Shown in pieces: positions 5,948 through 30,058 of a stretch of 64,000 nucleotides of DNA. The DNA is taken from the NCBI RefSeq assembly GCF_030813495.1, contig NZ_JAUSUI010000004.1:1-64000 (forward strand). Direction: 5' to 3'. Made by a program: the position numbers and the translations under genes. Positions within the stretch are counted from its first letter, which is position 1. Every line of letters begins with the position of its first letter. This stretch comes from Ancylobacter polymorphus (GTDB taxonomy: Bacteria; Pseudomonadota; Alphaproteobacteria; Rhizobiales; Xanthobacteraceae). The notes beneath the pieces are model-generated. The model was given only the letters and a program-made list of their open reading frames with translations. It was not told where the DNA came from and did not search any database.

Positions 5948-5998
5948 GACCGCTCCTCCCACCCCGCCTTGCCCGCCAGTGGCCGGCGCCACCGAATT

Positions 5999-7189: not shown

Positions 7190-7193
7190 TGGG

Positions 7194-9723: not shown

Positions 9724-9751
9724 AAAAGCCCAAAAACCAGAGGGGACAAGC

Positions 9752-10534
9752 ATGAAACACGCATTCAGGACGATGATCGCCGCTGCCGTCATCGGCATGG
9801 CCGGCATTTGCGGCGCCGCCGCCGAACCGCTCAAGGTCGGCTTTGCCGCCGAGCCCTATCCGCCCTTCGCCTCGCCGGACGCCAGCGGCAAGTGGGAAGG
9901 CTGGGAAGTCGAGTTCATGGAGGCCATGTGCAAGCAGGCCAAGCTCGAATGCGTGATCACGCCCGTTGCCTGGGACGGCATCATCCCGGCGCTGACCTCG
10001 AAGAAGATCGACATGATCGTCGGCTCGATGTCGATCACGCCCGAGCGGCTGAAGACCATCGACTTCTCCGACAAGTACTACAACACGCCGACCGGCGTGA
10101 TCGGCCCCAAGAGCGAGAAATTCACCGCAACGCCCGAGGGGCTGAAGGGCAAGACCATCGGCGTGCAGGTCGCCACCATCCACCAGGACTATGCCAACAA
10201 ATATTTCGGCAAGGCCGGCGCGACCGTGAAGGAATACCAGACGCAGGATGAGGCCAATGCCGACCTCGCGGCCGGGCGCCTCGACGCGGTGCAGGCCGAC
10301 GCCATCGCGCTCGCCGCCTTCCTCAGTACCGACCAGGGCAAGCAGTGCTGCGATCTCAAGGGCAATGTGAAGGATGACCCGGAAATCCTCGGCGCCGGCG
10401 TGGGCGTGGGCCTGCGCAAGGGCGACACCGAGCTGAAGGACAAGATCAACGCCGCCATCAAGGCGATCCGCGCCAACGGCACGTACGACAGCTTCTCCAA
10501 GAAGTATTTCGACTTCGACATCTATGGCGGCTGA
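9752..10534 (+). CDS. Polar amino-acid ABC importer, periplasmic binding protein
   Basis: 260 residues. A Sec signal peptide with a hydrophobic core AAAVIGMAGICG and cleavage near AAA-EP is followed by the SBP family 3 fold: VGFAAEPYPPF, then the segment WEVEFMEAMCKQAKL, and IDMIVGSMSITPERL with the conserved substrate-carboxylate region. Length and motifs match lysine/arginine/ornithine and histidine binding proteins (ArgT/HisJ/ArtJ type). The protein captures the amino acid in the periplasm and delivers it to the two permeases encoded downstream. AGGGG is placed well before the ATG. It sits 28 bases after the ATPase gene. The cargo is inferred from context as arginine-like; sequence alone does not fix it. 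Confidence 0.88.
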   Translation: MKHAFRTMIAAAVIGMAGICGAAAEPLKVGFAAEPYPPFASPDASGKWEGWEVEFMEAMCKQAKLECVITPVAWDGIIPALTSKKIDMIVGSMSITPERLKTIDFSDKYYNTPTGVIGPKSEKFTATPEGLKGKTIGVQVATIHQDYANKYFGKAGATVKEYQTQDEANADLAAGRLDAVQADAIALAAFLSTDQGKQCCDLKGNVKDDPEILGAGVGVGLRKGDTELKDKINAAIKAIRANGTYDSFSKKYFDFDIYGG

Positions 10535-10597
10535 TCCTGTGCGGGCCGGGCCGGCAGGGGATGCCGGCCCGCGCCCGCCGGAGCCCGGGAGGGGCAG

Positions 10598-11317
10598 ATG
10601 GCGGCCGACCTGATCAATTGGGGCCTGCTGGCGCTGGAGCCGCCCGGTTGGGGCGGCGTGCTGCTCGGCGGGCTGATGAACTCGCTCAAGATCGCCTTTG
10701 GCGGCTACGCGCTCGGCCTCGTGCTCGGCACGGGCGGCGCCTTCGGCAAGCTCTATGGCGGGCCGGTGACCAGGGACCTGATGGAGGTCTACACCACGCT
10801 GGTGCGCGCGGTGCCGGAGCTGGTGCTGATCCTGCTGCTCTATTACGCCGGTACGGATTTGCTCAACCGTCTCTCCGCCGCGCTGGGCTATGGGTCGGTG
10901 GACATCAGCGGGCTGGCGGCCGGCATCTTCGTCATCGGCGTGGTGCAGGGGGCCTATTCGACCGAGGTGCTGCGCGGGGCCATTCTCGCCGTGCCGGCCG
11001 GGCAGATCGAGGCGGCGCGCGCCTTCGGCATGTCGCCGCTGATGGTGCTGCGGCGGGTGACGCTGCCGGCCATGCTGCCGCATGCGCTGCCGGGGCTGTC
11101 CAATCTCTGGCTGATCTGCACCAAGGACACGGCGCTGCTCGCGGTGGTCGGCTTCAGCGAACTGACGCTGGTGACGCGGCAGGCGGCGGGCACGACCAAG
11201 GCCTATATGCTGTTCTTCTGCGCGGCGGGCGTGCTGTATCTGCTGCTGACGCTGGCTTCCACCCTCGTCATCCGCTTCATCGAGGCCCGCGCCCGGCGCG
11301 GCTGGGTGGCGCGATGA
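10598..11317 (+). CDS. Polar amino-acid ABC importer, permease 1 (HisQ-type)
   Basis: 239 residues with five or so membrane helices and the His/Glu/Gln permease pattern. A first helix with GGLMNSLKIAFGGYALGLVLG is followed by the loop LVRAVPELVLILLLYY and the EAA motif EAARAFGMSPLMVLRRVTLP that docks the ATPase. A strong GGGAGGGG precedes the ATG. Its stop overlaps the next permease start by four bases (ATGA), so the two are translated together and probably form a heterodimeric pore. The unit sits in the arginine-type locus, where the binding protein gene lies just upstream. Confidence 0.88.
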   Translation: MAADLINWGLLALEPPGWGGVLLGGLMNSLKIAFGGYALGLVLGTGGAFGKLYGGPVTRDLMEVYTTLVRAVPELVLILLLYYAGTDLLNRLSAALGYGSVDISGLAAGIFVIGVVQGAYSTEVLRGAILAVPAGQIEAARAFGMSPLMVLRRVTLPAMLPHALPGLSNLWLICTKDTALLAVVGFSELTLVTRQAAGTTKAYMLFFCAAGVLYLLLTLASTLVIRFIEARARRGWVAR

Positions 11318-12183
11318 CGCCCGAGCGCCGCGCCGGCGCGCCGGAGCCGCTGGTGGAGCTTCCGCCGGAGGAAAGCACGCTCGAGGCGACGGCGCTGACC
11401 CGCCTGCCGAGCGGGCGCGGTTTCCTTGAGCCGCATCGCCTCGCGCTGATGGCGGTGGCGGCGGTGCTGGTGTTCTGCGCCGCGTGGTTCATGCGCTGGG
11501 ACTGGCTGCCAACCTATGCGGGCGCGCTCGTCTCCGGCGTCGGCGTCACGCTGCTGATGCTGGTGAGCACGGCGCTGCTCGGCTTCGTGCTGGCGGTGCC
11601 GATCGGGCTGGTGCAGGTGACGGGGCCGTGGTGGCTGAGCCTGCCGGCGCAGGGCTTTTGCACCATCATCCGCGGCACGCCGCTGCTGCTGCAGCTCTGG
11701 CTGCTCTATTACGGGCTCGGCTCGCTGTTTCCGCAATTCCCGGAAATCCGCCAGTCCTTTCTCTGGCCCTATCTGCGCGAAGCCTGGCCCTATGGCGTGG
11801 CGGCGCTGACCTTTTCCTTCGCGGCCTATGAGGGCGAGGTGATGCGCGGCGCCTTTGCCGGCGTGCCGAGGGGCGAGCTGGAAGCGGCCCGCGCTTACGG
11901 CATGAGCCGCTGGAAACTGTTCTGGCGCATCTGGCTGCCACGCGCCGTGCACCGCGCCTTGCCCACGCTCAATGGCGAGACCGTGCTGCAGCTGAAGGCG
12001 ACCCCGCTCGTCGCCACCATCACGGTGATCGATGTCTATGCCGTCATCTCCAAGATCCGGCAGGTGACCTATCTCACCTATGAACCGCTGCTGCTGCTCG
12101 CGCTGATCTACCTTATCCTCACCGCTTTGCTGGTGGCGGGATTCCGCTATTTCGAGAACAGAATACCCAACCGGAGTGCCTGA
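11314..12183 (+). CDS. Polar amino-acid ABC importer, permease 2 (HisM-type)
   Basis: 289 residues, longer than the usual 230-240 because of an N-terminal cytoplasmic extension of about 45 residues rich in proline and glutamate before the first helix (LALMAVAAVLVFCAAWF). The core holds IIRGTPLLLQLWLLYYG and the EAA loop ELEAARAYGMSRWKLFWRIW. It forms the second half of the transport pore. The start is the ATG overlapping the previous stop (ATGA). The M20 hydrolase gene starts two bases after its stop codon, so the hydrolase is part of the same transcript. The extension could have a regulatory role; nothing shows what. Confidence 0.87.
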   Translation: MTPERRAGAPEPLVELPPEESTLEATALTRLPSGRGFLEPHRLALMAVAAVLVFCAAWFMRWDWLPTYAGALVSGVGVTLLMLVSTALLGFVLAVPIGLVQVTGPWWLSLPAQGFCTIIRGTPLLLQLWLLYYGLGSLFPQFPEIRQSFLWPYLREAWPYGVAALTFSFAAYEGEVMRGAFAGVPRGELEAARAYGMSRWKLFWRIWLPRAVHRALPTLNGETVLQLKATPLVATITVIDVYAVISKIRQVTYLTYEPLLLLALIYLILTALLVAGFRYFENRIPNRSA

Positions 12184-13398: not shown

Positions 13399-14301
13399 AT
13401 GCGAGTGCCCTCGACACAGGCGCTGCGGGCGCTGGAAGCCTTCGCCCGGCATGGCACGGTCTGGCAGGCGGCGGCGGAGCTGAACATCACCCGCAGCGCG
13501 GTCAGCCACCAGCTGCGCTTCCTCGAACAGGATCTCGGCTTCGCTTTGCTCCAGCGCGCCGGCAAGGGCGTGAGCCTGACGCCGCAGGGCAAGCGCTACG
13601 CCGCCGATGTCCGCACCGCTCTGGCCCTGCTGGCTGACGCGGCGGTGCAATATGGCGATCGCGGCCTGCTGCAGGGGGCGATCACCATCAGCTCGACGCC
13701 GGGCTTCGCCACCTTCTGGCTCTGCACCCATATCGCCGAGTTCCGCCAGCTTCACCCCGGCGTGACGCTGCGCATCGTCACCCCGCCGCGCCTGGAGGAT
13801 GTCGACGCGCCGGGCGTCGACGCCTTCATCGCCTATGGCGACGGCGACTGGCCGCGCCACAGCGTGGAACTGCTGAGCGTCGTCGACTTCATGCCGGTGT
13901 GCAGCCCGGTGCTGCTCAACCAGCTCGGGGGCTTGAGCGAGCCGGTGGACGTGTTCCGCACGGTGCTGCTGCATCTCGACGGGCTCGGCGACTGGTTCAC
14001 CTGGCTGTCGGCGGCCGGTGTCGTGGCGCCGCGCACCGATCAGGGCGTGGTCTTCTCCGACATGAACCTCGTCCTGGCAGCGGCGCTGGCGGGGCAGGGG
14101 ATCGCCATCGGCGACAATTTCGTCTGCCGGCAGGCGGTGGAGACCGGGCGGCTGGTGGTGCCGTTCGATCTCACCATCCGCGCCTCGCGGGCCTATTACT
14201 TCGTCACCCCGCGCGACCGCCCCGGCAATCCCGCGATACAGGCCTTCGCGGACTGGCTGAAATCACGCCTCGTCCAGACCGCGCCTGTCATGCGGATATG
14301 A
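13399..14301 (+). CDS. LysR family regulator (GcvA-like)
   Basis: 300 residues. The N-terminal winged helix-turn-helix contains TQALRALEAFARHGTVWQAA and the recognition part LNITRSAVSHQLRFLEQ, the form used by the GcvA/AmpR subgroup, followed by a periplasmic-binding-like effector domain. It lies 43 bases after the M20 gene on the same strand, so it may be the last gene of the importer unit or be read from its own promoter. It could control the arginine-type locus to the left or the 14.4 kb operon to the right. The effector cannot be told from sequence. Confidence 0.87.
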   Translation: MRVPSTQALRALEAFARHGTVWQAAAELNITRSAVSHQLRFLEQDLGFALLQRAGKGVSLTPQGKRYAADVRTALALLADAAVQYGDRGLLQGAITISSTPGFATFWLCTHIAEFRQLHPGVTLRIVTPPRLEDVDAPGVDAFIAYGDGDWPRHSVELLSVVDFMPVCSPVLLNQLGGLSEPVDVFRTVLLHLDGLGDWFTWLSAAGVVAPRTDQGVVFSDMNLVLAAALAGQGIAIGDNFVCRQAVETGRLVVPFDLTIRASRAYYFVTPRDRPGNPAIQAFADWLKSRLVQTAPVMRI

Positions 14302-14450: not shown

Positions 14451-15533
14451 GTGAGCAAGCGCGCGGTCGGGTTGCAGGCGGTCGGGATCGGCAAAACCTT
14501 CGGCCACTTCACGGCGCTGGAGGACATCACGCTCGACATCGCGGCGGGTGAGTTCCTGACCCTGCTCGGTCCTTCGGGGTCCGGCAAGACCACCTTCCTC
14601 ATGGTGCTCGCCGGTTTCCAGGCCGCGAGCACGGGCCGGCTGTTCAGCGACGGCACCGACATCACCCGCAGCCGGGCGGAGGACCGTTCCTTCGGCATGG
14701 TGTTTCAGGGCTATGCGCTGTTTCCGCACAAGAGCGTCGCGCAGAACATCGCCTTTCCGCTGCAGGTGAGGGGCGTGGCGCGCGAGGACATCGCCCGCCG
14801 GGTCGACGCCATCATCGCCCGCGTCGGGCTGGTGGGGCACGCGAACAAGCGCCCCGCCCAGCTGTCGGGCGGGCAGCAGCAGCGCGTGGCGCTGGCCCGC
14901 GCGCTGGTGTTCGAGCCGCCGGTGCTGCTGCTCGACGAGCCGTTTTCCGCTCTCGATAAGCATTTGCGCGGCCGTATGCAGGACGAGGTGGCGCGGCTGC
15001 ATGGCGAGTTCGGCACCACCTTCGTCTTCGTCACCCATGACCAGAGCGAGGCGCTGTCGCTGTCCTCGCGCATCGCCATCTTCAACCATGGCCGGCTGCT
15101 TCAGGTCGGCGCGCCGCGCGACATCTATGAGCGCCCGTCGAGCCGCTTCGTCGCCGAGTTCCTCGGCGAGATCAACCTGCTGCCGGTGGGCGGCATCGGC
15201 CATTGCGCGCGCGGCACCAGCGGCCTGTTCGAGGAGGTGCGCCTCACCGCGCCACGGCATGAAAACCTTAACGGCAGTGCCGTGCTGGCGGTGCGGCCCG
15301 AGCACATGTCGGTCAGCCCCGAGCCGCCGGCAGAGGGCAATGGCGTGCCCGCCCGGCTCGCCGGCACCACCTATCTCGGCTCGGCGATGCGCCTTGCCTT
15401 CGCCACACGCAGCGGCACCCCGCTGACCGTGACCCTGCCGAGCGAGGCCGCCGGCCGCATCCTCGCCCATGGGCCGGATGTCTGGGTGACCTGGTCCTTC
15501 GAGAATGGCTTCCTTCTTCCAGAGCAAAGCTGA
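14451..15533 (+). CDS. Polyamine-type ABC importer, ATP-binding protein (PotA-like)
   Basis: 360 residues. Walker A LGPSGSGKTT, Q-loop MVFQGYALFPHKSV, signature LSGGQQQR and Walker B LLLDEPFSALD give a complete ABC ATPase. A C-terminal TOBE-like domain (after about residue 235, with LAVRPEHM) is typical of PotA, UgpC and CysA relatives. Start: a GTG with GGGAG upstream; no ATG lies nearby in frame. It begins a run of nine same-strand genes to 23.8 kb. Family: spermidine/putrescine/2-aminoethylphosphonate-type uptake. The actual cargo is probably the substrate of the enzymes that follow. Confidence 0.88.
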   Translation: MSKRAVGLQAVGIGKTFGHFTALEDITLDIAAGEFLTLLGPSGSGKTTFLMVLAGFQAASTGRLFSDGTDITRSRAEDRSFGMVFQGYALFPHKSVAQNIAFPLQVRGVAREDIARRVDAIIARVGLVGHANKRPAQLSGGQQQRVALARALVFEPPVLLLDEPFSALDKHLRGRMQDEVARLHGEFGTTFVFVTHDQSEALSLSSRIAIFNHGRLLQVGAPRDIYERPSSRFVAEFLGEINLLPVGGIGHCARGTSGLFEEVRLTAPRHENLNGSAVLAVRPEHMSVSPEPPAEGNGVPARLAGTTYLGSAMRLAFATRSGTPLTVTLPSEAAGRILAHGPDVWVTWSFENGFLLPEQS

Positions 15534-15551
15534 AAACAGCAGGAGCACGCC

Positions 15552-16667
15552 GTGAACGACGCATTCCAGAAAGACTGCCTCGACATTCTCGCGGCGAAGG
15601 CCGCGCGTGGCGAGATCGACCGCCGCCGCTTCACCCAGCTCGCCGCGATGGTCTTCGGCGGCGCGACCCTGCTCCTGCGCACGCCCGAGGCGCTGGCGCA
15701 GGTGCGCCAGCTCGTGCTGGTCAATTGGGGCGGCGACGCGCTGAAGGCCTATGACAAGGCCTATGGCCAGCCCTTCGAGAAGGCGACGGGCATCGTCGTC
15801 AAGGAGGACGGCACCGGCCCGACCGAGGGCGCCATCGCCGCCCAGTTCAAGAGCGGCAAGCCGACCTGGGATATCGTCGATGCCGACCCGTTCTCGGCCA
15901 TCTCGCTCGGCAAGCAGGGGATGATCGAGCCGATCGACTATACGATCGTCGACAAGACGAAGATGCGGCCCGGCTTCGACTGGGAATATGCCGCCTCGAC
16001 CTATTTCTTCTCCTATGTCCTTGCCTATGACGCGGAGAAATACGGCGCCAATCCGCCCAAGACCATGGCCGACTTCTTCGATGTGAAGACGTTCCCGGGC
16101 AAGCGCACCATGTATAAATGGGGCGCGGGCATGTGGGAGGCGGCGCTGCTGGCCGATGGCGTCGCTCCCGACAAGCTCTACCCGCTCGATCTCAAGCGCG
16201 CCCATGCCAAGATCGCCGCGCTGAAGCCGGATGTCGCGGCCTATTGGGGCGGCGGCGCGGAGAGCCAGCAGCTGATGCTGAGCGGCGATGCCTCGATGGG
16301 GCTGATCTGGTCGACCCGCGCCTCGCTGATCGAGAAGGATTCCGGCGGCCAGATCAAGTTCACCTGGAACCAGGGCCTGCTGTCGCCGGGCGCGCTGGCG
16401 GTAATCAAGAACAATCCCGGCGGCAAGGAGAACGCGATGAAGTTCATCGCCTCCACCTCCGTGCCCGAGCGCCAGCTGGTCATGTTCGAGATGCTGGGGC
16501 AGGGACCGGCCAATCCGGCGACCGATGCGCTGATCCCCGCCGACCAGCGCCGCTACAACCCGGTCGATCCCGCCAATATGAAGGGCCAGGCCGTGCTCGA
16601 CATGCCCTGGTACGCCGACAATTACGGCGCCGCGCTCGACGAGTTCACCAAGGTCATCTCGGCCTGA
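15552..16667 (+). CDS. Polyamine-type ABC importer, periplasmic binding protein (PotD-like)
   Basis: 371 residues. A GTG start with AGGAG upstream gives an N-terminus that contains DRRRFTQLAA before a hydrophobic stretch, a twin-arginine-like export signal, with cleavage near ALAQ (about residue 50). The mature part has the extracellular solute-binding family 1/PotD pattern: VLVNWGGDALKAYDKAYG, the WDIVDADPFSAI loop, and the LMLSGDASMGLIW region. It would capture a cationic or zwitterionic organic solute. A strong stem-loop follows the stop (16675-16705), which may raise the level of this protein over the permeases. Cargo not determined. Confidence 0.86.
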   Translation: MNDAFQKDCLDILAAKAARGEIDRRRFTQLAAMVFGGATLLLRTPEALAQVRQLVLVNWGGDALKAYDKAYGQPFEKATGIVVKEDGTGPTEGAIAAQFKSGKPTWDIVDADPFSAISLGKQGMIEPIDYTIVDKTKMRPGFDWEYAASTYFFSYVLAYDAEKYGANPPKTMADFFDVKTFPGKRTMYKWGAGMWEAALLADGVAPDKLYPLDLKRAHAKIAALKPDVAAYWGGGAESQQLMLSGDASMGLIWSTRASLIEKDSGGQIKFTWNQGLLSPGALAVIKNNPGGKENAMKFIASTSVPERQLVMFEMLGQGPANPATDALIPADQRRYNPVDPANMKGQAVLDMPWYADNYGAALDEFTKVISA

Positions 16668-16674
16668 GGCCCGC

Positions 16675-16705
16675 GCCCTCCCGCGTGGCGCGCGGGAGGG
16701 CTTTT
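16675..16705 (+). terminator. Stem-loop with T-run between binding-protein and permease genes
   Basis: GCCCTCCCGCG at 16675-16685, a five-base loop, the exact complement CGCGGGAGGGC at 16691-16701 and then TTTT. It looks like an intrinsic terminator, but the operon clearly goes on 19 bases later with the first permease. It is therefore probably a leaky terminator or an mRNA-stabilising stem that favours the binding protein, as known in other binding-protein operons. Confidence 0.7.
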
Positions 16706-16723
16706 CCTCCGACGGATTCCCCC

Positions 16724-17563
16724 ATGCGCCCGCGCTCCGCCTTCTGGCCCGCACTCGCCCTGACAGCGCCTCTGGTGCTGTTCCTGGCGTTTGCCTATGC
16801 GCTGCCCTTCCTTGGCGTCGCGCTGTGGAGCGTGACCCTGCCGGAGCCGGGAGTGGGCCAGTATGAGCGGCTGGTGAGCGATCCGCTGGTGCTGTCGGTG
16901 TTCCTGCGCACCTTCCGCATCTGTTTCCTCGTCACGCTGATCGCGGTGGCCTGCGCCTATGCCGTCACCTATGTCTGGGTGCGGGGCTCAAGGATGCAGC
17001 GCCGGCTCATCGAGATCTGCATCTTTGTCCCGTTCTGGATTTCGCTGCTGACGCGCGCCTTTGGCTGGCTGGCGCTGCTGTCCAATCGCGGCATCGTCAA
17101 TAGCTGGCTGCAGGCGCTCGGCCTCATCGACGCGCCGCTGGCGCTGGTGCGCAACGAGCCGAGCGTGATCGCCGGCATGGTGCATGTGCTCATTCCCTTC
17201 GCCGTGCTGCCGCTCGCCTCCGCGATGCGGGCGGTGGACGAGCGGGTGCTGCTCGCGGCCCGTGGCATGGGCGCCTCGCGCCTGCGCATCTTCTGGTCGG
17301 TGTTCTTTCCCATGACGCTGCCCGGCGTGATCGGCGCGACGCTGATCGTCTTCGTGTTCAGCCTCGGCTTTTTCGTCACCCCGGCCATTCTCGGCGGCGG
17401 CCGTTCGATCATGGTGGCCGAACTGGTGTATCTGCGCATGTTCCAGAGCCCCGACTGGGGGCTGGGCGCAGCGATCAGCGTGGCGCTGGTCGTTCTCGTC
17501 GCCGCGCTGATGGGCCTGCTCGCGCGCTTCGCCCGGCTCGGGCTGATGGGGAGCGGGCGATGA
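16724..17563 (+). CDS. Polyamine-type ABC importer, permease 1 (PotB-like)
   Basis: 279 residues with six predicted helices. Recognisable parts are the N-terminal helix LALTAPLVLFLAFAYALPF, the FWISLLTRAFGWLALL block, and the EAA-type loop AARGMGASRLRIFWSVFFP that contacts the ATPase. The open frame extends far upstream as a shadow of the binding-protein gene; I chose the ATG at 16724 because the first helix follows it directly and it lies after the stem-loop. The stop overlaps the next permease start (ATGA). Together the two permeases form the transport channel of the operon's importer. Confidence 0.87.
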   Translation: MRPRSAFWPALALTAPLVLFLAFAYALPFLGVALWSVTLPEPGVGQYERLVSDPLVLSVFLRTFRICFLVTLIAVACAYAVTYVWVRGSRMQRRLIEICIFVPFWISLLTRAFGWLALLSNRGIVNSWLQALGLIDAPLALVRNEPSVIAGMVHVLIPFAVLPLASAMRAVDERVLLAARGMGASRLRIFWSVFFPMTLPGVIGATLIVFVFSLGFFVTPAILGGGRSIMVAELVYLRMFQSPDWGLGAAISVALVVLVAALMGLLARFARLGLMGSGR

Positions 17564-18372
17564 AAATCCAGCGTCCCGGACCCGTCGCGGTCGTGCTTGC
17601 GCTGTTGGTGGGGGTGTTCCTGCTGCTGCCGCTGCTGGCGGTGGTGCCGATTTCCTTCACCCCCGGCCGGCTGCTGACCCTGCCCAAGGGCAGCCTGTCG
17701 CTGACCCATTACCGCACGCTGTTCGAGAATCCGGACTGGCTCGCCAGCATCCTGCTGAGCGCGCGCATCGCGCTGTTCACCAGCGTGATCGCGACCGGGC
17801 TGGCGACCAGCTTCGCGCTCGGCATCTGGATGCTGCAGCCGCGCTTTTCCCAGCTGCTGGTCGGCTTCGTGCTGCTGCCGATGATCGTGCCGCCGGTGGT
17901 TTCCGCGATGACGCTGTATTTCCTGCTCACCGGCATGTCGCAGGTCTCGCACGCCATCGGCTTCGACAGCGTGATCGGCGTCACCCTCGCCCATGTGGTG
18001 ATGACGGTGCCTTTCGCGGTGGTGATGGTGCTGGTGGCGCTGGCGCAGGTCGACCGGCGCATCGACCTCGCCGCGCGCGGCATGGGGGCGGGAATCGTCC
18101 AGCGCATCGTGCATGTCATCCTGCCCAATATCGGCTTCGGCGTGGCGACGGCGGCGCTGCTGGTCTTCGTCCTGTCCTGGGAGGAGATCGGCGTCACGCT
18201 GTTCATCACCAGCGTCGACGCGATCACCCTGCCGCGCCTGATGTGGATGGGGCTGCGCGACAATGTCGATCCCGCCGTCGCCGCCATTTCCGTCGTGCTG
18301 ATCGTGGTCACGACGCTGATCCTGCTGGCCCGCATGGCGCTGCAGCGCCGCCCCGATTTCGAGGAGGAATGA
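17560..18372 (+). CDS. Polyamine-type ABC importer, permease 2 (PotC-like)
   Basis: 270 residues with six helices. The N-terminal helix VVLALLVGVFLLLPLLAVVPI, the LLPMIVPPVVSAMTLYF block and the EAA loop DLAARGMGAGIVQRIVHVILP match PotC-type permeases. Translation is coupled to permease 1 through an ATGA overlap, and the desaturase-like gene starts one base after its stop (…TGAGATG). That tight join is the main reason to treat transporter and enzymes as one operon. No unusual feature in the protein itself. Confidence 0.87.
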   Translation: MKIQRPGPVAVVLALLVGVFLLLPLLAVVPISFTPGRLLTLPKGSLSLTHYRTLFENPDWLASILLSARIALFTSVIATGLATSFALGIWMLQPRFSQLLVGFVLLPMIVPPVVSAMTLYFLLTGMSQVSHAIGFDSVIGVTLAHVVMTVPFAVVMVLVALAQVDRRIDLAARGMGAGIVQRIVHVILPNIGFGVATAALLVFVLSWEEIGVTLFITSVDAITLPRLMWMGLRDNVDPAVAAISVVLIVVTTLILLARMALQRRPDFEEE

Positions 18373-18373
18373 G

Positions 18374-19372
18374 ATGGACGAGGTATTCGGCCGCAAGGAC
18401 ATGATCAGTCCCTCCCGGCTCAAGGAACTGAGCGCGAAATCGGATGTGTCGGGCTTCATCCAGCTCGGCAGCCATCTCGGCGCGCTGGCGATCACCGGCG
18501 CGGCGCTGTGGTTCAGCTGGGGCACGTGGTGGATGGTGCCGGTGTTCATGCTGCACGGCACGCTGATCAACTTCCTCTATGCCGGCCAGCATGAGATGAG
18601 CCATTCCACGGTGTTCAGGACCAAGGGGCTGAACGAGTTCTTCGGCCGGCTGTTCGGCTTCGTGCTGATCTATCCGCGCGATTTCGACCAGATCCAGCAT
18701 TTCGCCCATCACCGCTACACCCAGGACTGGGAGGGCGATGGCGAGCTGGGGCGCGAGCGCTATTCGATGCTGTCCTATCTGCTCTGGGTGCTGGGGCCGA
18801 CCTATTGGTACAGCCGCATCCGCCGGGTGCTGCGCTTCGCCTTCGGCATCGTCAGCGAGCATTACATTCCGCAGGACCAGCACGCGAAGGTGATCCGCGA
18901 GGCACGCTGGCATCTAGCGGGCTATGCGCTGATCGCGCTCCTGTCGGTGGCGACGGGCAGCTGGCTCGCGGTGAAGCTCTGGCTGCTGCCGATGCTTGTC
19001 ATGAAGCCGGTGCACCAGCTGCAGAACACGATCGAGCATCTCGGCCTGCCGCATGTCGACCAGATCACCGAGAATACCCGCACCACGCGCACCAATGCGC
19101 TGATGCGCTGGATGTGCTGGAACATGCAGTTCCACACCGCGCACCACGCCTTCCCCGGCGTGCCGTTCCACCGGCTGCCGGATCTTCACCGCACCATCTT
19201 CGTGGAGAAGGGCCGCAAGCCGCATTCCATGACCTATCTCGGCTTCCAGCTGGCGGTGATCAAGGCGTTCTGGAACGGGCGGACCGAGGCGGACTATCCC
19301 GACGACAAGATCTGGATCATGGACGACACCGACCTCGAACCGGTCGGCCCGCGCGCCGCCAAGCGGGTCTGA
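18374..19372 (+). CDS. Membrane diiron fatty-acid-desaturase-family protein
   Basis: 332 residues. The three histidine boxes of the FA_desaturase/AlkB superfamily are intact: HEMSH (73-77), HFAHH (109-113, with H109, H112, H113) and HTAHH (254-258), plus H222 in NTIEHLG. Four or so membrane helices lie between them. Such enzymes use a diiron centre and O2 to desaturate or hydroxylate a substrate at the membrane. Because the gene is translationally packed between an importer and aldolase/Rieske genes, I infer that it hydroxylates or desaturates a small imported molecule or an acyl derivative of it, rather than doing general lipid synthesis. That is inference; a lipid role remains possible. Confidence 0.82.
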   Translation: MDEVFGRKDMISPSRLKELSAKSDVSGFIQLGSHLGALAITGAALWFSWGTWWMVPVFMLHGTLINFLYAGQHEMSHSTVFRTKGLNEFFGRLFGFVLIYPRDFDQIQHFAHHRYTQDWEGDGELGRERYSMLSYLLWVLGPTYWYSRIRRVLRFAFGIVSEHYIPQDQHAKVIREARWHLAGYALIALLSVATGSWLAVKLWLLPMLVMKPVHQLQNTIEHLGLPHVDQITENTRTTRTNALMRWMCWNMQFHTAHHAFPGVPFHRLPDLHRTIFVEKGRKPHSMTYLGFQLAVIKAFWNGRTEADYPDDKIWIMDDTDLEPVGPRAAKRV

Positions 19373-19375
19373 GCC

Positions 19376-20230
19376 ATGCCGCTCAAGGTCTACCAGTCGC
19401 TCTGGGCCACGGAACAGCGCCGCCCCGGCACGCCGGAGCGGCCGGTGGCCGAGCGCTTCGATGCGGTGAAGGCGGCGGGCTTCGACGGCATGGCCATCGA
19501 CCTCGGCGCCATGGATATCGACGCGGCGCGGGGCACGGTGGCCGAGTTCGCCCGCACCGGCCTTGGCGGGCTGCTGACCGCCTTTCCCCGCTCGATCGAG
19601 GAACTGCGCCCGGCGCTGCACCTCGCCAAGGAGATCGGTTCGCCCTTCGTCATCGTCATCGGCCAGGTGATGCCGCTCTCCGTGGCGGAGATGGTGCCGG
19701 TCATCGAGGCGTGGATGCGGATCGGGCGGGAGGAGGGCGTCCCGCTGCAGTTCGAGACGCACCGCAACTGCATCACCAACGACATGTTCGCGACGCTGCT
19801 GCTCATGGACGCCATCCCCGAGATGCGGCTCGCCGCCGACCTGTCGCATTATGTGGTCGACCGCGAGATGATGCTGCCGATCAGCGCCGATTATCAGGCG
19901 CAGGTCGGCCGGCTGCTGGAGCGTTCGGACAGCTTCCAGGGCCGGGTCGCCAATCGCTGCCAGGTGCAGCTGCCGCTGCATTTCCCGCAGCACCAGCCCT
20001 GGGTCGCCGTGTTCCGCGACTGGTGGCGGCGTGGATTCACCTCATGGCAGGCGCGCCACGGCACGGACGCCGACTGCCTGTTCCTGTGCGAACTCGGCCC
20101 CCGCGACTACGCCATCACCGACGCGCAGGGCGAGGAATTGTCGGACCGCGCGCAGGAGGCCCTGCACCTGCGCCAATGGGCGCTTGAGGACTGGGCCGCC
20201 GCCGCGCGCCCCGTCGCCGAACCGAACTGA
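19376..20230 (+). CDS. Xylose-isomerase-like TIM-barrel protein
   Basis: 284 residues with the alternating pattern of the AP_endonuc_2/sugar-phosphate isomerase-epimerase superfamily: VKAAGFDGMAIDLG early, IGSPFVIVIG in the middle, LQFETHRNCITND (a metal-glutamate strand) and MRLAADLSHYVV (acidic/histidine strand). Members isomerise, epimerise or dehydrate small sugars and hydroxy acids using a divalent metal. It starts three bases after the desaturase-like gene and is followed after 12 bases by a class II aldolase gene. An isomerase next to an aldolase suggests that the pathway ends in cleavage of a hydroxylated or keto intermediate. The substrate is unknown. Confidence 0.75.
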   Translation: MPLKVYQSLWATEQRRPGTPERPVAERFDAVKAAGFDGMAIDLGAMDIDAARGTVAEFARTGLGGLLTAFPRSIEELRPALHLAKEIGSPFVIVIGQVMPLSVAEMVPVIEAWMRIGREEGVPLQFETHRNCITNDMFATLLLMDAIPEMRLAADLSHYVVDREMMLPISADYQAQVGRLLERSDSFQGRVANRCQVQLPLHFPQHQPWVAVFRDWWRRGFTSWQARHGTDADCLFLCELGPRDYAITDAQGEELSDRAQEALHLRQWALEDWAAAARPVAEPN

Positions 20231-20242
20231 GGAGAAGCCGTC

Positions 20243-21004
20243 ATGACTGTGGCCTGCCTGAGTTCCGAGATGAGCGCCGCCGAATGGCAGCAGCGGGTCG
20301 ACCTCGCCGCCTGTTACCGGCTGCTCGCACATTACCGGATGACCGACCTCATCTACACCCATTGCACCGTGCGGGTGCCGGGCGAGCCGGGGCGGTTTCT
20401 CATCAACCCCTATGGGCACCGCTGGGAGGAGATCACCGCCTCCTCGCTGGTGAAGATCGATGTCGACGGCAACAAGGTGGGCGACAACCCGCACCGGGTG
20501 AATCCCGCCGGCTTCACCATTCACTCCGCCGTGCATATGAGCCGGCACGACGCGGCCTGCGTCATCCACACCCATACCCGCGCCGGCATGGCGGTGGCCT
20601 CGCTGAAGGAAGGGCTGCTGCCGCTCAACCAGATTGCGCTGCAATTCTATGGCCGGCTCGGCCTGCATGACTATGAGGGCATCGCGCTCGACCTCGACGA
20701 GCGCGAACGCATCATCGCCGACCTCGGCACCCATTGCGGCCTGCTGCTGCGCAATCACGGCCTGCTCACCGTCGGGCGGAGCGTCGCCGAGGCGTTCAAC
20801 CTGATGTTCTATCTGGAGCGCGCCTGCGAGGTGCAGGTGGCGACCCTTTCCATGGGCCGCGAGATCGTGCTGCCGCCGCCGGACGTCTGCGAGAAGGTCG
20901 GCGCGCAATACGACCAGATGAATTTCGACGACGGCGACCTGCAACTCGAATGGGACGCGCATCTGCGGATGCTCGACGCGCTCGATCCGTCCTACCGCAC
21001 CTGA
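20243..21004 (+). CDS. Class II aldolase/adducin family protein
   Basis: 253 residues with the aldolase II fold: the phosphate/acid region LINPYGHRWEEITASSLVKI, zinc ligands H109 and H111 in VIHTHTRAG, and H171 in LLRNHGLLTVG. Members such as fuculose-1-phosphate aldolase cut C-C bonds through a zinc enediolate; others decarboxylate or hydrolyse. GAGGAG lies well before the ATG. Within this operon it probably cleaves a product of the oxygenase and isomerase steps, feeding a two- or three-carbon unit into central metabolism. Some family members are not aldolases, so the reaction is inferred. Confidence 0.82.
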   Translation: MTVACLSSEMSAAEWQQRVDLAACYRLLAHYRMTDLIYTHCTVRVPGEPGRFLINPYGHRWEEITASSLVKIDVDGNKVGDNPHRVNPAGFTIHSAVHMSRHDAACVIHTHTRAGMAVASLKEGLLPLNQIALQFYGRLGLHDYEGIALDLDERERIIADLGTHCGLLLRNHGLLTVGRSVAEAFNLMFYLERACEVQVATLSMGREIVLPPPDVCEKVGAQYDQMNFDDGDLQLEWDAHLRMLDALDPSYRT

Positions 21005-21048
21005 ACATTCAAGGGATCAGCAAGATCCGAACGCCTGGGAGCACGCAC

Positions 21049-22131
21049 ATGACCACCGAGACGAGTGCCGCCGCTGGCGGCTTTGACTGGACCCTACCGG
21101 CCAGCGACTATTGCGATCCCGCGCTTTACGAGCGCGAGCGCAGGGAAATCTTCGCCCGCAACTGGATGCTGTTCACCTGGTCGGAGCGGCTGCAGAAGCC
21201 GGGCGACTATGTGACCGGCACGCTGGCGGGCTACCCCGTCTTCGTCATCCGCGACGATGACGGTGTGGTGCGCGCCTTCCACAATGTCTGCCGCCATCGC
21301 GGCGCGCAGCTCCTGGAAAAGGAGGAGGGCCATTGCGGCAAGCTGGTGGTCTGCCCCTATCACAGCTGGAGCTTCACCCGTGACGGCGCCCTGAACAAGG
21401 CGGTGGATTTCGGCGAGGGCATTACGTTCGACCCGAAGGCGTGGGGCCTTTACGCCATCGACGCCGAGGAATGGCGCGGCCTCGTCTTCCTGCGCATCGC
21501 GCGCGGCGGCGAGAGCCTCATCGACTGGCTCGGTCCGATCCACGCCATGGCGGCGGATTATCCGCTGGAGCAGCAGCACTATTTCATGTCGAAAGACCGC
21601 GACTGCGCCGTCGACTGGAAAGTCTATGGCGAGAACTATCTCGAATGCTACCACTGCCGGACCATGCATCCGGGCCTGTGCCAGTCGATGGATATCGACA
21701 ATTACCGGATCGACACCTATCCGAAGGACAAGTTCTTCCACCTGCACGCGCCCAAGCGCGATGGCGGGCTGACGCGGGGACTTTATTTCTATCGCTTCCC
21801 CTTCCTCATGCTGAACCTCTACGACTGGGGCTCCTCCATCGCCACCATCGAGCCGCTGGGGCCGGGGCGCATCCGCCACATCAACTGGTACTTCTTCACC
21901 GATGTCTCGCCTGAAAAGGCGGAAGAGAACCGCCGTTCGGCCGAGTGGTCGGCGCAGATCGTGACCGAGGATCTCGACATCATCACCGGCGTGCAGCGCA
22001 ACCTCGCGGCGGGAATCTATACGCGCGGGCCGCTGTCGCCCAAAAATGAGCATTCGGTCAAAGCCTTCCAGGACATGTGCCGCGAAGGACTTGAGCCCAA
22101 GGCCCCGCTGCGCGGCGTCGCCGCGGAATAA
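21049..22131 (+). CDS. Rieske non-heme iron oxygenase, alpha subunit (choline/betaine/carnitine type)
   Basis: 360 residues. The Rieske [2Fe-2S] site is C81-x-H83 in NVCRHRGA and C102-x2-H105 in VCPYHSW. The mononuclear iron site is H202 and H207 in NYLECYHCRTMHPG, with a downstream aspartate near 308. The bridging acid before the first iron histidine is glutamate (E199), as I recall for carnitine oxygenase CntA, not the aspartate of naphthalene dioxygenase. The block DGALNKA also resembles choline monooxygenase. This suggests oxidative N-demethylation or C-N cleavage of a quaternary or tertiary amine. No separate reductase gene is seen nearby. The start is the ATG with GGGAG upstream; the longer open frame is a shadow. 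Confidence 0.88.
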   Translation: MTTETSAAAGGFDWTLPASDYCDPALYERERREIFARNWMLFTWSERLQKPGDYVTGTLAGYPVFVIRDDDGVVRAFHNVCRHRGAQLLEKEEGHCGKLVVCPYHSWSFTRDGALNKAVDFGEGITFDPKAWGLYAIDAEEWRGLVFLRIARGGESLIDWLGPIHAMAADYPLEQQHYFMSKDRDCAVDWKVYGENYLECYHCRTMHPGLCQSMDIDNYRIDTYPKDKFFHLHAPKRDGGLTRGLYFYRFPFLMLNLYDWGSSIATIEPLGPGRIRHINWYFFTDVSPEKAEENRRSAEWSAQIVTEDLDIITGVQRNLAAGIYTRGPLSPKNEHSVKAFQDMCREGLEPKAPLRGVAAE

Positions 22132-22178
22132 ATCGTGCCGTCCTTGGGAATGCGATCCGTCAGCGTGGGGTTAAAGCG

Positions 22179-23804
22179 ATGAATGCCGACGTTACCGTGG
22201 GCAAGGTTTACGACGCCATCATTATCGGCGCCGGGCATAATGGCTTGGTCTGCGCCAACTATCTCGCCAAGGCGGGGCAGAAGGTGCTGGTGCTGGAGCG
22301 CCGCGATGTCGTCGGCGGGGCGGCGGTGACGGAGGAGATCGCGCCCGGCTTCCGGGCGTCGATCTTCTCCTACCTCATGAGCCTGCTGCACCCGCGCATC
22401 ATTCGCGAGCTGGAGCTGAAGAAGCACGGGCTGGAAGTGCTGCCCTGCTCGGACATGGTCTCCCCGCTGGACGGGGAGGACTACATCCTGTTCTCCGACA
22501 ACATCGCCAAGTCGCAGGCGAGTTTCGCCCGCTTCTCCAAGCATGATGCGGACATGTATCCCGAGTTCGACCGCTATCTGAACGAGGCGGCCAACATCGT
22601 GCGCAAGCTTTTGTGGGAGACGCCGGTCGACCCGACGAAGCGCGACTGGCGCACCTTCAAGGACGGGGCGTCGCTGCTGTGGCGCCACCGCAAGATCGGG
22701 CGGAAGATGTACCGCATCGTCGATATGCTGACGATGAGCGCCTATGACTTCCTGCGCGAATGGTTCGAGGATGAGCGCGTGATGGCCGTGCTGGCCTATT
22801 ACGCCTCGATCGGCACCTTTGCCGGGCCGAAATCGCCGGGTTCGGCCTATGTCATCATGCACCACATCATGGGCGAGCATGAGGGTGCCGGCGGCTGGGG
22901 CTTCATCAAGGGCGGCATGGGGTCGATCACGCAGGCGCTGGCCTCTTCCGCGCGCGAGAAGGGCGTCGACATCGTCACCGGCGCGCCGATCCGGGAAGTG
23001 CGCGTGCAGAATGGCCGCGCCACGGCGGTCTCGACCACGACGGGCGAGACCTATGCGGCCAGGACCATCATCTCCAATGCCAGCGCCAAGACGCTCTATC
23101 TCGACCTCGTCGGCGAGACGCATCTGCCGGAGGAGGTGGTGCGGGAGATCAAGGGCTATCGCACCTTCTCCACCGCCTTCAAGATGAACATCGCCTGCGA
23201 GCGCCCGCCGCAATACCGCATCCTCGACCGCGTGCGGCGCGAAGGGACGCTGGGGAATTTCGACTACCCCACCTACATGCACATCGCGCCCGACATCGAC
23301 TATCTGGAGCGCGCCTATGACGATGCCAAGCATGGCTGGTACTCGTCGCGCCCCTTCATCACCCCCGTGGTGCCGACCATGGTGGACACCACGCTGGCCC
23401 CGCCCGGCAAGCATGTGGTCAATCTGTTCGGCGGCCACGCGCCCTACACGCTGAAGGGCGGCGACTGGGCGAGCGAGAAAGAGAACTTCCGCAAGACGGT
23501 GTTCGACACGATCGAGGAATACGCCCCCGGCTTCCGCGACGATGTGATCGAGGCGCAGCTGCTCGTCGCGCCCGATATCGAGAACATCGTCAACCTGCCG
23601 CAGGGCCACATCTTCCATGGCGAGCTGTCGACCGACCAGCTGTTCTTCCAGCGGCCGGTCTCGGGCTATGCGGATTACCGCACGCCGGTGAAGGGCCTCT
23701 ACATCTGCGGCTCGTCCATGCATCCCGGCGGCGGCGTTTCCGGCATTCCCGGCTTCAACGCCGCCCGCGAGGTGATGCGCGACATCAAGGCGAAGCGGAA
23801 CTGA
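22179..23804 (+). CDS. CrtI/PYROXD2-type FAD-dependent oxidoreductase
   Basis: 541 residues. The N-terminal dinucleotide-binding motif IIIGAGHNGL (G17, G19, G22) with E40 at the end of beta 2 binds FAD ADP; the C-terminal FAD block is LYICGSSMHPGGGVSGIPG near 505-525. Overall length and pattern match the phytoene-desaturase-related group that includes PYROXD2. Such flavoproteins dehydrogenate C-C or C-N bonds. In this operon it could oxidise an amine or unsaturated intermediate, or supply electrons. It is the last gene of the run, 47 bases after the Rieske gene, and is followed by a GC hairpin between convergent genes. Carotenoid synthesis is unlikely because no other crt genes are present. 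Confidence 0.84.
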   Translation: MNADVTVGKVYDAIIIGAGHNGLVCANYLAKAGQKVLVLERRDVVGGAAVTEEIAPGFRASIFSYLMSLLHPRIIRELELKKHGLEVLPCSDMVSPLDGEDYILFSDNIAKSQASFARFSKHDADMYPEFDRYLNEAANIVRKLLWETPVDPTKRDWRTFKDGASLLWRHRKIGRKMYRIVDMLTMSAYDFLREWFEDERVMAVLAYYASIGTFAGPKSPGSAYVIMHHIMGEHEGAGGWGFIKGGMGSITQALASSAREKGVDIVTGAPIREVRVQNGRATAVSTTTGETYAARTIISNASAKTLYLDLVGETHLPEEVVREIKGYRTFSTAFKMNIACERPPQYRILDRVRREGTLGNFDYPTYMHIAPDIDYLERAYDDAKHGWYSSRPFITPVVPTMVDTTLAPPGKHVVNLFGGHAPYTLKGGDWASEKENFRKTVFDTIEEYAPGFRDDVIEAQLLVAPDIENIVNLPQGHIFHGELSTDQLFFQRPVSGYADYRTPVKGLYICGSSMHPGGGVSGIPGFNAAREVMRDIKAKRN

Positions 23805-23876: not shown

Positions 23877-23909
23877 CCTGATCCGATCAGGTTGGAGCAA
23901 CCTGATCGG
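23877..23909. repeat. Inverted repeat CCGATCAGGTT-GGAGC-AACCTGATCGG overlapping the aconitase stop
   Basis: An exact 11-base stem (23883-23893 and 23899-23909) with a five-base loop; a third CCTGATC arm lies at 23877-23883. The aconitase stop codon TGA is inside the right arm, so the last codons are encoded by the repeat. Its form resembles short dispersed palindromes common in Hyphomicrobiales intergenic DNA. It could also act as a 3' end stem for the minus-strand operon. Confidence 0.6.
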
Positions 23910-26550: not shown

Positions 26551-26566
26551 CCTGATGCCTCGCCGC

Positions 26567-27424: not shown

Positions 27425-27441
27425 GGGCGCGTGTCCTCGGC

Positions 27442-30026: not shown

Positions 30027-30058
30027 GGGGGTGATCCTCGGGGAGCCGCGCGGCCGGC

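What the first reader, a model, noticed from the sequence alone, without database searches (positions are those of the whole stretch)
14451..23804. Importer-linked operon joining a diiron membrane oxygenase, a Rieske oxygenase, a TIM-barrel isomerase-like protein, a class II aldolase and a CrtI/PYROXD2 flavoprotein
Nine plus-strand genes with gaps of one to about 50 bases and one ATGA overlap run from a polyamine-type ABC importer into five enzymes. Two oxygen-using enzymes of unrelated type (three-histidine-box diiron and Rieske) in one small-molecule operon is uncommon. The Rieske iron site with E199 before H202 resembles carnitine/choline/betaine oxygenases, which suggests that a quaternary or tertiary amine is imported, oxidised twice and then split by the aldolase. 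I know of no described pathway with this set.
Basis: partly seen in the sequence, partly recalled or inferred. Interest (0 to 1): 0.8.

Follow-up and report, generated by a model that had tools for sequence, protein, structure and literature searches.

The report
Import-and-oxidise operon for cationic nitrogen compounds
Bacteria of the Ancylobacter type carry a conserved set of genes that appears to import a positively charged nitrogen-containing acid, probably a guanidino acid or a betaine, and take it apart with two different oxygen-using enzymes; the enzyme families are known, but the pathway was not found described.

Summary
The nine-gene operon is real, with a LysR gene just upstream, and keeps its order in 8 of 8 Ancylobacter-type relatives found. 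Of 15 relatives' genomes searched, 9 hold the Rieske orthologue (66-91%), in 5 on another contig than the diiron gene; a 385-genome class sample has 4, the window's own included. One MAG has all five enzymes near a non-homologous importer. The Rieske protein has group V marks (E199, C200/C203) and the group Va tyrosine Y197, so a cationic-nitrogen substrate is likely. I favour oxidative catabolism of an omega-guanidino, perhaps N-methylated, acid; a betaine such as gamma-butyrobetaine is the main rival. The aldolase-family protein shows no Glu where fuculose aldolase has its catalytic one, so cleavage is unproven. Known families in a combination my searches did not find described; substrate unknown.

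The parts
13399..14301 (+). LysR-type regulator (GcvA-like), probable regulator of the operon
   Evidence: PF03466/PF00126; NF008352 262.5 bits, below cut-off 288; precedes the importer in 13 of 24 related loci
14451..15533 (+). ABC importer ATPase (PotA/PhnT-like)
   Evidence: PF00005, PF08402; TIGR01187 potA 322 bits, below cut-off 355.6
15552..16667 (+). substrate-binding protein (SBP_bac_8); nearest solved relatives are GABA-sensor proteins; W59, W253, R256 match their site, the ammonium-binding Asp does not
16675..16701 (+). terminator-like hairpin between SBP and permease genes, possible attenuator
   Evidence: 12-pair stem, TTTTCC tail; 64-base stretch folds at -32.6 kcal/mol, z -2.08; perfect hairpins of 9-13 pairs somewhere in the same gap in L002, L024, L004, L006, L007, L015, not in L003 and L005 (7 and 5 pairs); T-starting tails only in L024, L004, L007; no control made
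16724..17563 (+). ABC importer permease 1
   Evidence: PF00528
17560..18372 (+). ABC importer permease 2 (ATGA overlap with permease 1)
   Evidence: PF00528
18374..19372 (+). membrane diiron hydroxylase of the PF00487 superfamily; boxes H73-ExxH77, H109-xxHH113, H254-xxHH258
19376..20230 (+). xylose-isomerase-like TIM-barrel protein, constant partner of the diiron protein; putative metal site E127, D155, Q196, E239
   Evidence: follows the diiron gene in 24 of 24 loci, directly in 23 and about 1.1 kb away in L022; E127/D155/H158/Q196 in 59 of 59 rows, E239 in 57 (2 gaps); fold; metal-site reading inferred
20243..21004 (+). class II aldolase/adducin family protein (PRK07044 type); His H109, H111, H172 kept, no Glu between residues 87 and 108
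   Evidence: NF005451 371 bits over cut-off 207
21049..22131 (+). group Va-like Rieske oxygenase
   Evidence: PF00355, PF00848; carnitine monooxygenase 146 bits best solved relative; E199, C200/C203, Y197, H202, H207, D308
22179..23804 (+). CrtI/PYROXD2-like FAD oxidoreductase
   Evidence: PF01593 79 bits; CrtO model 280 bits, below cut-off 1000
4346..5947 (-). linked block: 2-ketoarginine (5-guanidino-2-oxopentanoate) decarboxylase, AruI type
   Evidence: NF005712 754 bits over cut-off 500
5999..7189 (-). linked block: class I/II aminotransferase, AruH/GntC-like
   Evidence: PF00155; best NCBIfam GntC 247.5 bits, below cut-off 415
7194..7835 (-). linked block: BetI-like TetR regulator
   Evidence: TIGR03384 99 bits, below cut-off 201
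7832..8686 (-). linked block: dimethylargininase/arginine-deiminase-family protein
   Evidence: PF02274 57 bits; NF045660 87.5 bits, below cut-off 340
8950..12183 (+). linked block: basic-amino-acid-type ABC importer (ATPase, SBP_bac_3, two permeases)
   Evidence: SBP TIGR01096 lysine/arginine/ornithine 236 bits, below cut-off 256; gene calls

Best explanation
A LysR-controlled uptake-and-oxidation operon for a small carboxylic acid with a cationic nitrogen at the far end, most likely an omega-guanidino acid of the arginine family, free or N-methylated (for example 4-guanidinobutyrate or its N-methyl forms). Proposed order, all inferred: (1) the GABA-protein-like importer brings the acid in; (2) the diiron protein, with electrons from a ferredoxin/reductase encoded elsewhere, hydroxylates the carbon chain; (3) the Rieske enzyme hydroxylates the carbon next to the cationic nitrogen, as CntA does with carnitine, so that the unstable product falls apart into guanidine (or an amine) and a hydroxy-aldehyde acid; (4) the TIM-barrel protein isomerises that product as sugar isomerases do; (5) the class II aldolase-family protein decarboxylates or cleaves it; the flavoprotein removes further hydrogens. 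Several lineages without the Rieske gene carry a guanidino-hydrolase-family gene beside the diiron/TIM pair instead, perhaps as an alternative way to remove the guanidine nitrogen. Shown: gene content, conservation, co-occurrence and active-site residues. Inferred: substrate and every reaction.
For: Gene order kept in 8 of 8 Ancylobacter-type loci. Of 15 genomes tested (of the 24 loci), 9 have the Rieske orthologue (66-91%): all 8 tested members of the 15-row branch of the diiron tree that holds the window, plus L014; in 5 it is on a different contig from the diiron gene (contigs and lengths). Class sample: 4 of 385, own included. In the same 9 genomes the flavoprotein (61-96%) is in 8 and the aldolase (72-95%) in 7. 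L013 has all five enzymes with a Dpp-type importer, in two plus-strand runs parted by a minus-strand gene. Group V Rieske marks and pi-cation Tyr. Guanidine side: PF00491-family gene in 9 of 40 diiron/TIM loci, the immediate neighbour of TIM in 8; that of L025 is closest to 3-guanidinopropionase and guanidinobutyrase (280 and 237 bits); DDAH/ADI-family gene at 11 other places; AruI-type gene upstream in the window and L002, downstream in L004, L007, L015; DDAH-like gene and arginine-type importer beside aldolase and Rieske in Aureimonas L141. Binding-protein site keeps two Trp and an Arg but not the ammonium Asp. Controls: TIM genes without a diiron neighbour 1 of 15 with ureohydrolase family, 0 of 15 with DDAH family; mocD-type loci 0 of 4 for both.
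Against: No substrate is known. Group V Rieske enzymes described so far act on quaternary ammonium compounds, and CntA rejects non-quaternary analogues (PMC10952381, PMC7948474 passages). In the Rieske branch no ureohydrolase-family gene was found beside the pair. The guanidine genes are not constant: DDAH-like orthologue (74% or more) in 2 of 15 genomes, AruI at 80% or more in 2 of 15; L004 lacks AruH and DDAH calls, L006 the AruI call; 8 of the 11 DDAH places are Ancylobacter-type. The tree tool, which ignores the 23 rows in neither group, needs only one change between the ureohydrolase and Rieske labels, so a single origin of each is not excluded and 'alternatives' may just follow ancestry. 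The link to GntB arginine hydroxylase is weak and unspecific (41.6 bits, cut-off 380; 21 of 21 aligned proteins, MocD kin included, match). Three class genomes carry the Rieske gene (54-60%) with no TIM match at 1e-40, and 26 other class genomes with a TIM match lack the Rieske gene at 1e-90; L081, the diiron neighbour of L014 in the tree, is one of them. No reductase or ferredoxin is in the operon.
Confidence: 0.42

Rival explanations
1. The substrate is a quaternary ammonium acid, such as gamma-butyrobetaine or a related betaine. The diiron protein makes the 3-hydroxy compound (the carnitine step), the group Va Rieske enzyme cleaves it to trimethylamine and malic semialdehyde, and the TIM and aldolase-family proteins process the semialdehyde. 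The guanidine genes nearby belong to separate arginine catabolism.
For: Rieske closest to carnitine monooxygenase CntA, with Y197/E199/C200/C203/Y219/N256 matching CntA Y203/E205/C206/C209/Y225/N270. Binding-protein site is aromatic and lacks the ammonium Asp. BCCT-family carrier beside the pair in L092, MTTB-family gene in the L016 cluster (same cluster family in L018 and L019), BetI-like regulator in the linked block.
Against: CntA residues Y295, Y315, F319 are not kept (I278, S301, V305, weakly aligned region). It does not explain guanidino-hydrolase-family genes right beside the diiron/TIM pair in 8 of 40 loci.
Confidence: 0.32
2. Several pathways share one locus: an importer/diiron/TIM module, an aldolase/Rieske module and the flavoprotein, brought together in Ancylobacter by chance or for co-regulation.
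For: The modules separate in other genomes: TIM without the Rieske gene in 26 class genomes, aldolase next to Rieske away from the pair in L139, L140, L141, a 54-60% Rieske gene followed by its own importer in L189 and L191.
Against: Rieske, and mostly flavoprotein and aldolase, are retained together with the pair in 9 genomes (six named genera and a MAG) even when unlinked, and stand near each other with another importer in L013.
Confidence: 0.16
3. The substrate is something else with a cationic nitrogen, such as an arginine-derived opine or a methylated polyamine acid.
For: The binding protein is also related to agropine and mannopine (MotA) binding proteins (134 and 128 bits), and to an entry named polyamine-binding (201 bits).
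Against: The best matches are GABA-sensor proteins (210 and 207 bits); no opine oxidase was recognised among the neighbours that were annotated, which were only some of all neighbours.
Confidence: 0.1

Closest known systems
CntA, Rieske carnitine monooxygenase (group Va)
   Same: Fe ligands, bridging Glu, Cys pair, pi-cation Tyr, Y225 and N270 positions
   Different: Three further pocket residues differ (weakly aligned part); no reductase gene in the operon; 146 bits only
Stc2, stachydrine demethylase (group Vb)
   Same: Group V with a Cys pair; the PDB entries I recall as Stc2 (3vca, 4qup) match at 127 and 126 bits
   Different: The window protein has the tyrosine that PMC7948474 gives as the pi-cation residue of group Va
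MocDEF rhizopine oxygenase system
   Same: PF00487 oxygenase; TIM-barrel proteins of the same family follow mocDEF-like triples in L107-L110
   Different: No MocE/MocF genes in the operon (a MocF-like reductase, 42%, lies elsewhere in the genome); 30% identity to the R. leguminosarum protein
GntB, L-arginine gamma-hydroxylase of guanitoxin biosynthesis
   Same: Best NCBIfam match of the diiron protein
   Different: 41.6 bits against a cut-off of 380; 21 of 21 proteins of the alignment match the model
Arginine transaminase pathway (AruH/AruI, guanidinobutyrase)
   Same: An AruI-model decarboxylase and related genes are linked; guanidino-hydrolase-family genes adjoin the core pair in other lineages
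   Different: The known pathway, as I recall it, has no oxygenases

Membership tests
Group V Rieske oxygenases | Rieske cluster ligands CxH and CxxH plus 2-His-1-Asp mononuclear iron site | tested here: met
   C81, H83, C102, H105, H202, H207, D308; invariant in 19 of 19 rows
Group V Rieske oxygenases | Cys-X-X-Cys pair beside the iron site (some members) and bridging Glu as in CntA | tested here: met
   C200/C203 in 16 of 19 rows, E199 in 19 of 19; PMC10952381 passages
Group V Rieske oxygenases | oxidises a quaternary ammonium substrate | not testable with these tools
   needs enzyme assay
CntA carnitine monooxygenase | pi-cation Tyr203 and pocket residues Y225, N270, Y295, Y315, F319 | tested here: inconclusive
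   first three match (Y197, Y219, N256), last three do not (I278, S301, V305); alignment weak in that part
CntA carnitine monooxygenase | CntB reductase encoded alongside | tested here: not met
   no reductase among the nine genes; that CntB is usually encoded alongside is recalled
Glycine betaine monooxygenase GbcA | NF058607 curated cut-off 670 bits | tested here: not met
   139.9 bits
Membrane diiron PF00487 superfamily | Pfam cut-off, three His boxes, desaturase/AlkB fold | tested here: met
GntB arginine hydroxylase | NF041365 cut-off 380 bits | tested here: not met
   41.6 bits
MocD rhizopine oxygenase | adjacent MocE ferredoxin and MocF reductase | tested here: not met
   absent from the operon
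Class II aldolases (FucA type) | Zn-binding His triad plus catalytic Glu | tested here: inconclusive
   His kept; no Glu at the six positions 17-22 residues before the first His in any of 17 rows; the place of the Glu is recalled from FucA and no structural alignment was made
Xylose-isomerase-like TIM barrels | fold and metal-site residues | tested here: met
Polyamine importer PotABCD | TIGR01187 cut-off 355.6 bits for the ATPase | tested here: not met
   322.2 bits
CrtI/CrtO carotenoid enzymes | TIGR02734 cut-off 238, NF045689 cut-off 1000 | tested here: not met
   115 and 280 bits
5-guanidino-2-oxopentanoate decarboxylase (linked gene 4346-5947) | NF005712 cut-off 500 bits | tested here: met
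   754 bits
Dimethylargininase (linked gene 7832-8686) | NF045660 cut-off 340 bits | tested here: not met
   87.5 bits

The most novel reading that the evidence does not exclude
An unrecognised oxidative route for guanidino acids: a membrane diiron hydroxylase and a dedicated TIM-barrel partner form the core, and a group Va Rieske enzyme cleaves the carbon-nitrogen bond to release guanidine or a methylated guanidine. As far as I know (recall, not a search) this would be the first Rieske enzyme that removes a guanidine group, and a new biological source of free guanidine; the SxtT-type Rieske enzymes hydroxylate guanidine-bearing molecules without doing so.
Probability: 0.2. Interest if true: 0.78.

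Novelty: new variant of a known kind. Interest (0 to 1): 0.52.

Why it matters
It defines a conserved catabolic module (diiron hydroxylase plus TIM-barrel partner) found in a minority of Alphaproteobacteria (TIM match in 27 of 385 class genomes), with different importers and different nitrogen-removing enzymes beside it. If the substrate is a guanidino acid it would link oxygenases to guanidine chemistry and give a source of free guanidine; if it is a betaine it would suggest a way to hydroxylate such compounds with a membrane diiron enzyme instead of a 2-oxoglutarate enzyme. Either way it makes a short list of substrates testable and suggests that a 'fatty acid desaturase' label is misleading in this setting.

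Tried and rejected
Fatty-acid or carotenoid function: set aside because the diiron and flavoprotein genes sit in an import operon and score far below the carotenoid and desaturase cut-offs. GntB-like arginine hydroxylase as an identification: dropped, since 21 of 21 proteins of the alignment, MocD kin included, match that model. Membership in CntA, GbcA, PotABCD, CrtI: not claimed, see membership table. A strict Rieske-needs-TIM rule: contradicted by three class genomes with a 54-60% Rieske gene and no TIM match. The AruI/DDAH block as a constant partner: not held up outside Ancylobacter and, for the DDAH-like gene and importer, Aureimonas. Downstream minus-strand aconitase, citrate-synthase-like, Fe-ADH and ALDH genes: genes of similar size and strand follow the operon only in L002 of the eight Ancylobacter-type relatives, so not included.

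Literature: ten searches used. I read passages only of PMC5789663, PMC12999171, PMC10952381, PMC7948474 and PMC11018352, and otherwise search listings. Five searches aimed at this pathway listed nothing that describes it; two searches showed only 10 of 140 and 12 of 3,287 papers, and subscription journals are largely outside that library.

Errors and limits: the Rieske query was one base out of frame; corrected, and onwards uses the right frame. The gene calls were trained with that one wrong frame among the genes used; they were not redone. Gene calls in the loci are my own codon-usage calls, not curated. I fetched flanks for 34 of the 45 non-own places listed, and tested 15 of the 24 genomes behind the loci. 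The 40 diiron/TIM loci are therefore not a random sample, include one place twice (L011 and L146) and many close relatives; the ureohydrolase and DDAH profiles used there were built partly from these same proteins. No structural alignment was made for the aldolase.

Full report
Observation. Spacing runs from an ATGA overlap of 4 bases to a gap of 56 bases. A LysR gene ends 149 bases upstream. Between the binding-protein and first permease genes is a 12-pair hairpin with a T-rich tail (16675-16701), the longest stem among 7 terminator-like sites of the region (5.5 expected, sd 2.4). Perfect hairpins of 9-13 pairs lie somewhere in the same gap in six of the eight Ancylobacter-type relatives, but only three have a tail that starts with T, the gaps are longer there, and no control was made. 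Such a site may only lower downstream expression; a single full transcript is not shown.

Where the window comes from. The diiron protein is 93-94% identical to proteins of Ancylobacter vacuolatus, A. rudongensis, A. aquaticus and a Xanthobacteraceae strain; the own genome has 4.71 Mb in 22 contigs.

Conservation. A scan of one genome for each of 84,980 species with the diiron protein gave 24 related loci. The TIM-barrel gene follows the diiron gene in 24 of 24, directly in 23 and about 1.1 kb away in L022. The same type of importer precedes the pair in 15 of 24 (14 complete, L017 cut by a contig end), with the LysR gene in 13. The full order from LysR to flavoprotein is kept in 8 of 8 Ancylobacter-type loci (L002-L007, L015, L024). 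Outside these, L009 has aldolase and Rieske upstream of the LysR gene. L013 has aldolase, Rieske, diiron and TIM in one plus-strand run and, past one minus-strand gene, a Dpp-type importer and the flavoprotein in another.

Co-occurrence of unlinked genes. In whole-genome searches of 15 of the genomes behind these 24 loci, nine (Ancylobacter x2, Lichenifustis, Aureimonas x2, Methylocapsa, Oceanicella, Chthonobacter, one MAG) have the Rieske orthologue at 66-91%. In five of them (G744, G746, G747, G748, G750) it is on a different contig from the diiron gene (contigs and contig lengths). The flavoprotein orthologue (61-96%) is in 8 of these 9 (43% in the ninth), the aldolase (72-95%) in 7 of 9 (57% in one, none at 1e-40 in one). 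The other six genomes have no Rieske match above 36%; their best flavoprotein matches are 44% (two genomes), and their best aldolase matches 57, 50, 45 and 35% (four genomes). In a sample of 385 genomes of the class 4 have the Rieske gene at E 1e-90 or better, the window's own included. Against a strict dependence: the three others had no TIM match at 1e-40, and 26 further genomes with a TIM match had no Rieske match. Retention of unlinked genes is good evidence for one pathway, but shared ancestry is a confounder: on the diiron tree the Rieske-bearing rows are one 15-row branch (support 88/55) plus L014, whose nearest row, L081, comes from a genome without the Rieske match.

The Rieske enzyme. 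Its nearest solved relative is carnitine monooxygenase (146 bits), then entries that I recall as stachydrine demethylase Stc2 (127 and 126 bits). Passages of PMC10952381 and PMC7948474 give the marks of group V: a Cys-X-X-Cys pair beside the iron in some members, in CntA a bridging Glu205, and in group Va Tyr203 holding the trimethylammonium group. The window protein has C200/C203, E199 and Y197 at these places, and Y219 and N256 for CntA Y225 and N270. CntA Y295, Y315 and F319 are not kept. Y197, E199, H202, H207, Y219 and D308 occur in 19 of 19 rows, the Cys pair in 16 of 19. It is therefore a group Va-like enzyme for a probably cationic substrate, but not shown to be CntA.

The guanidine link. 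In 40 diiron/TIM loci (39 places), a PF00491-family (ureohydrolase) gene is present in 9 and is the immediate neighbour of the TIM gene in 8. In L086 it is on the opposite strand; in L087 it is a divergent family member (84 bits in Pfam, no NCBIfam match), and L088 has its close kin. If rows without one are counted as lacking it, these loci lie on five branches of the diiron tree; the tree tool's own count, which ignores rows in neither group, needs one change only. The L025 protein is closest to 3-guanidinopropionase and guanidinobutyrase (280 and 237 bits). For scale, the window's genome has 7 homologues of that protein in 4.71 Mb, so adjacency by chance should be well under 1 in 100 loci (estimate). 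DDAH/arginine-deiminase-family genes lie 7 to 12 genes away at 11 other places: the window, seven Ancylobacter-type loci, two Aureimonas and one Methylocapsa. Controls: TIM genes without a diiron neighbour, 1 of 15 and 0 of 15; mocD-type loci, 0 of 4 and 0 of 4. In the window the minus-strand block at 4346-8686 holds an AruI-type 2-ketoarginine decarboxylase (754 bits over a cut-off of 500), an AruH/GntC-like aminotransferase, a BetI-like regulator and a DDAH-like protein, next to a basic-amino-acid-type importer. L002 has the AruI gene upstream as well. In four Ancylobacter-type relatives parts of the same block stand directly after the flavoprotein gene instead (L004, L006, L007, L015), so the two blocks have stayed together through a rearrangement, though L004 lacks AruH and DDAH calls and L006 the AruI call. 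In Aureimonas L141 the DDAH-like gene and that importer adjoin aldolase and Rieske. Across the 15 genomes the window-type DDAH gene (74% or more) and AruI gene (80% or more) are each in only 2.

The importer. The binding protein is nearest to GABA-sensor proteins (210 and 207 bits), then an entry named polyamine-binding (4eq7, 201 bits, which I recall as the GABA-binding Atu4243), and less near to agropine and mannopine binders. From the site residues given in PMC12999171 and the alignment, W9, W202 and R205 are kept (W59, W253, R256), while D228, which binds the GABA amino group, is G280; T13 and Y264 are A63 and Q317. None of 20 rows has Asp at the D228 place, and all 20 keep W253 and R256. 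That R205 faces the carboxylate is my inference. This fits a carboxylic acid with a different cation, guanidinium or methylated ammonium.

Mechanism and verdict. I commit to a guanidino acid at moderate confidence because the enzymes next to the constant diiron/TIM core belong to families that act on guanidino groups; the betaine reading rests on the Rieske enzyme and is nearly as good. The cleavage role of the aldolase-family protein is uncertain: the metal His are kept, but no Glu stands in the stretch where fuculose aldolase has its catalytic one (recalled). Electron donors must come from elsewhere; a MocF-like reductase (42%) is encoded on another contig. The families are all known; the combination and pathway were not found in the listings. 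I therefore call it a new variant of a known kind, of moderate interest, with a clear experimental path.

Noticed in passing
window 2505-3452, minus strand: Haem-dependent oxidative N-demethylase family gene (PF11927, 238 bits) a few genes from the AruI/DDAH-like block; it could oxidise dimethylamine if methylarginines are broken down here.
   Followed up: no
window 12186-13355: M20-family amidohydrolase (TIGR01891 378 bits over cut-off 154) between the basic-amino-acid importer and the LysR gene; kept in L002, L003, L005, L024 but not in the flanks of L004, L006, L007, L015.
   Followed up: partly
L143 7963-10050: In Oceanicella the Rieske orthologue (66%) sits directly behind a different PF00487 protein (43% to a Cupriavidus plasmid protein): a second diiron/Rieske pairing.
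   Followed up: partly
L028, L030: Ruegeria plasmids hold a PF00487 gene with a ferredoxin gene, a Rieske gene, sarcosine-oxidase-like genes and an MTTB-family gene: another diiron/Rieske cluster.
   Followed up: partly
L016, L018, L019: Kiloniellaceae MAGs: Dpp-type binding protein, diiron, TIM, ureohydrolase, class V PLP enzyme and MTTB-family methyltransferase in one run, with a TauD gene upstream in L016 and L019.
   Followed up: partly
L104 572-11457: A distant genome with TIM, AruI-like (47%), a Rieske protein (30%) and a MocF-like reductase (35%) in one minus-strand run, next to a sulfotransferase-family gene.
   Followed up: partly
L154, L155 (own genome): Two ureohydrolases 66% and 65% identical to the one beside the TIM gene in L025 lie elsewhere in the window's genome, one next to a CN-hydrolase, one next to a gamma-glutamyltranspeptidase.
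   Followed up: partly
window 23887-31084, minus strand: Aconitase, short citrate-synthase-like, Fe-ADH, ALDH and ADH genes downstream of the operon; genes of similar size and strand follow only in L002 among the eight Ancylobacter-type relatives.
   Followed up: no
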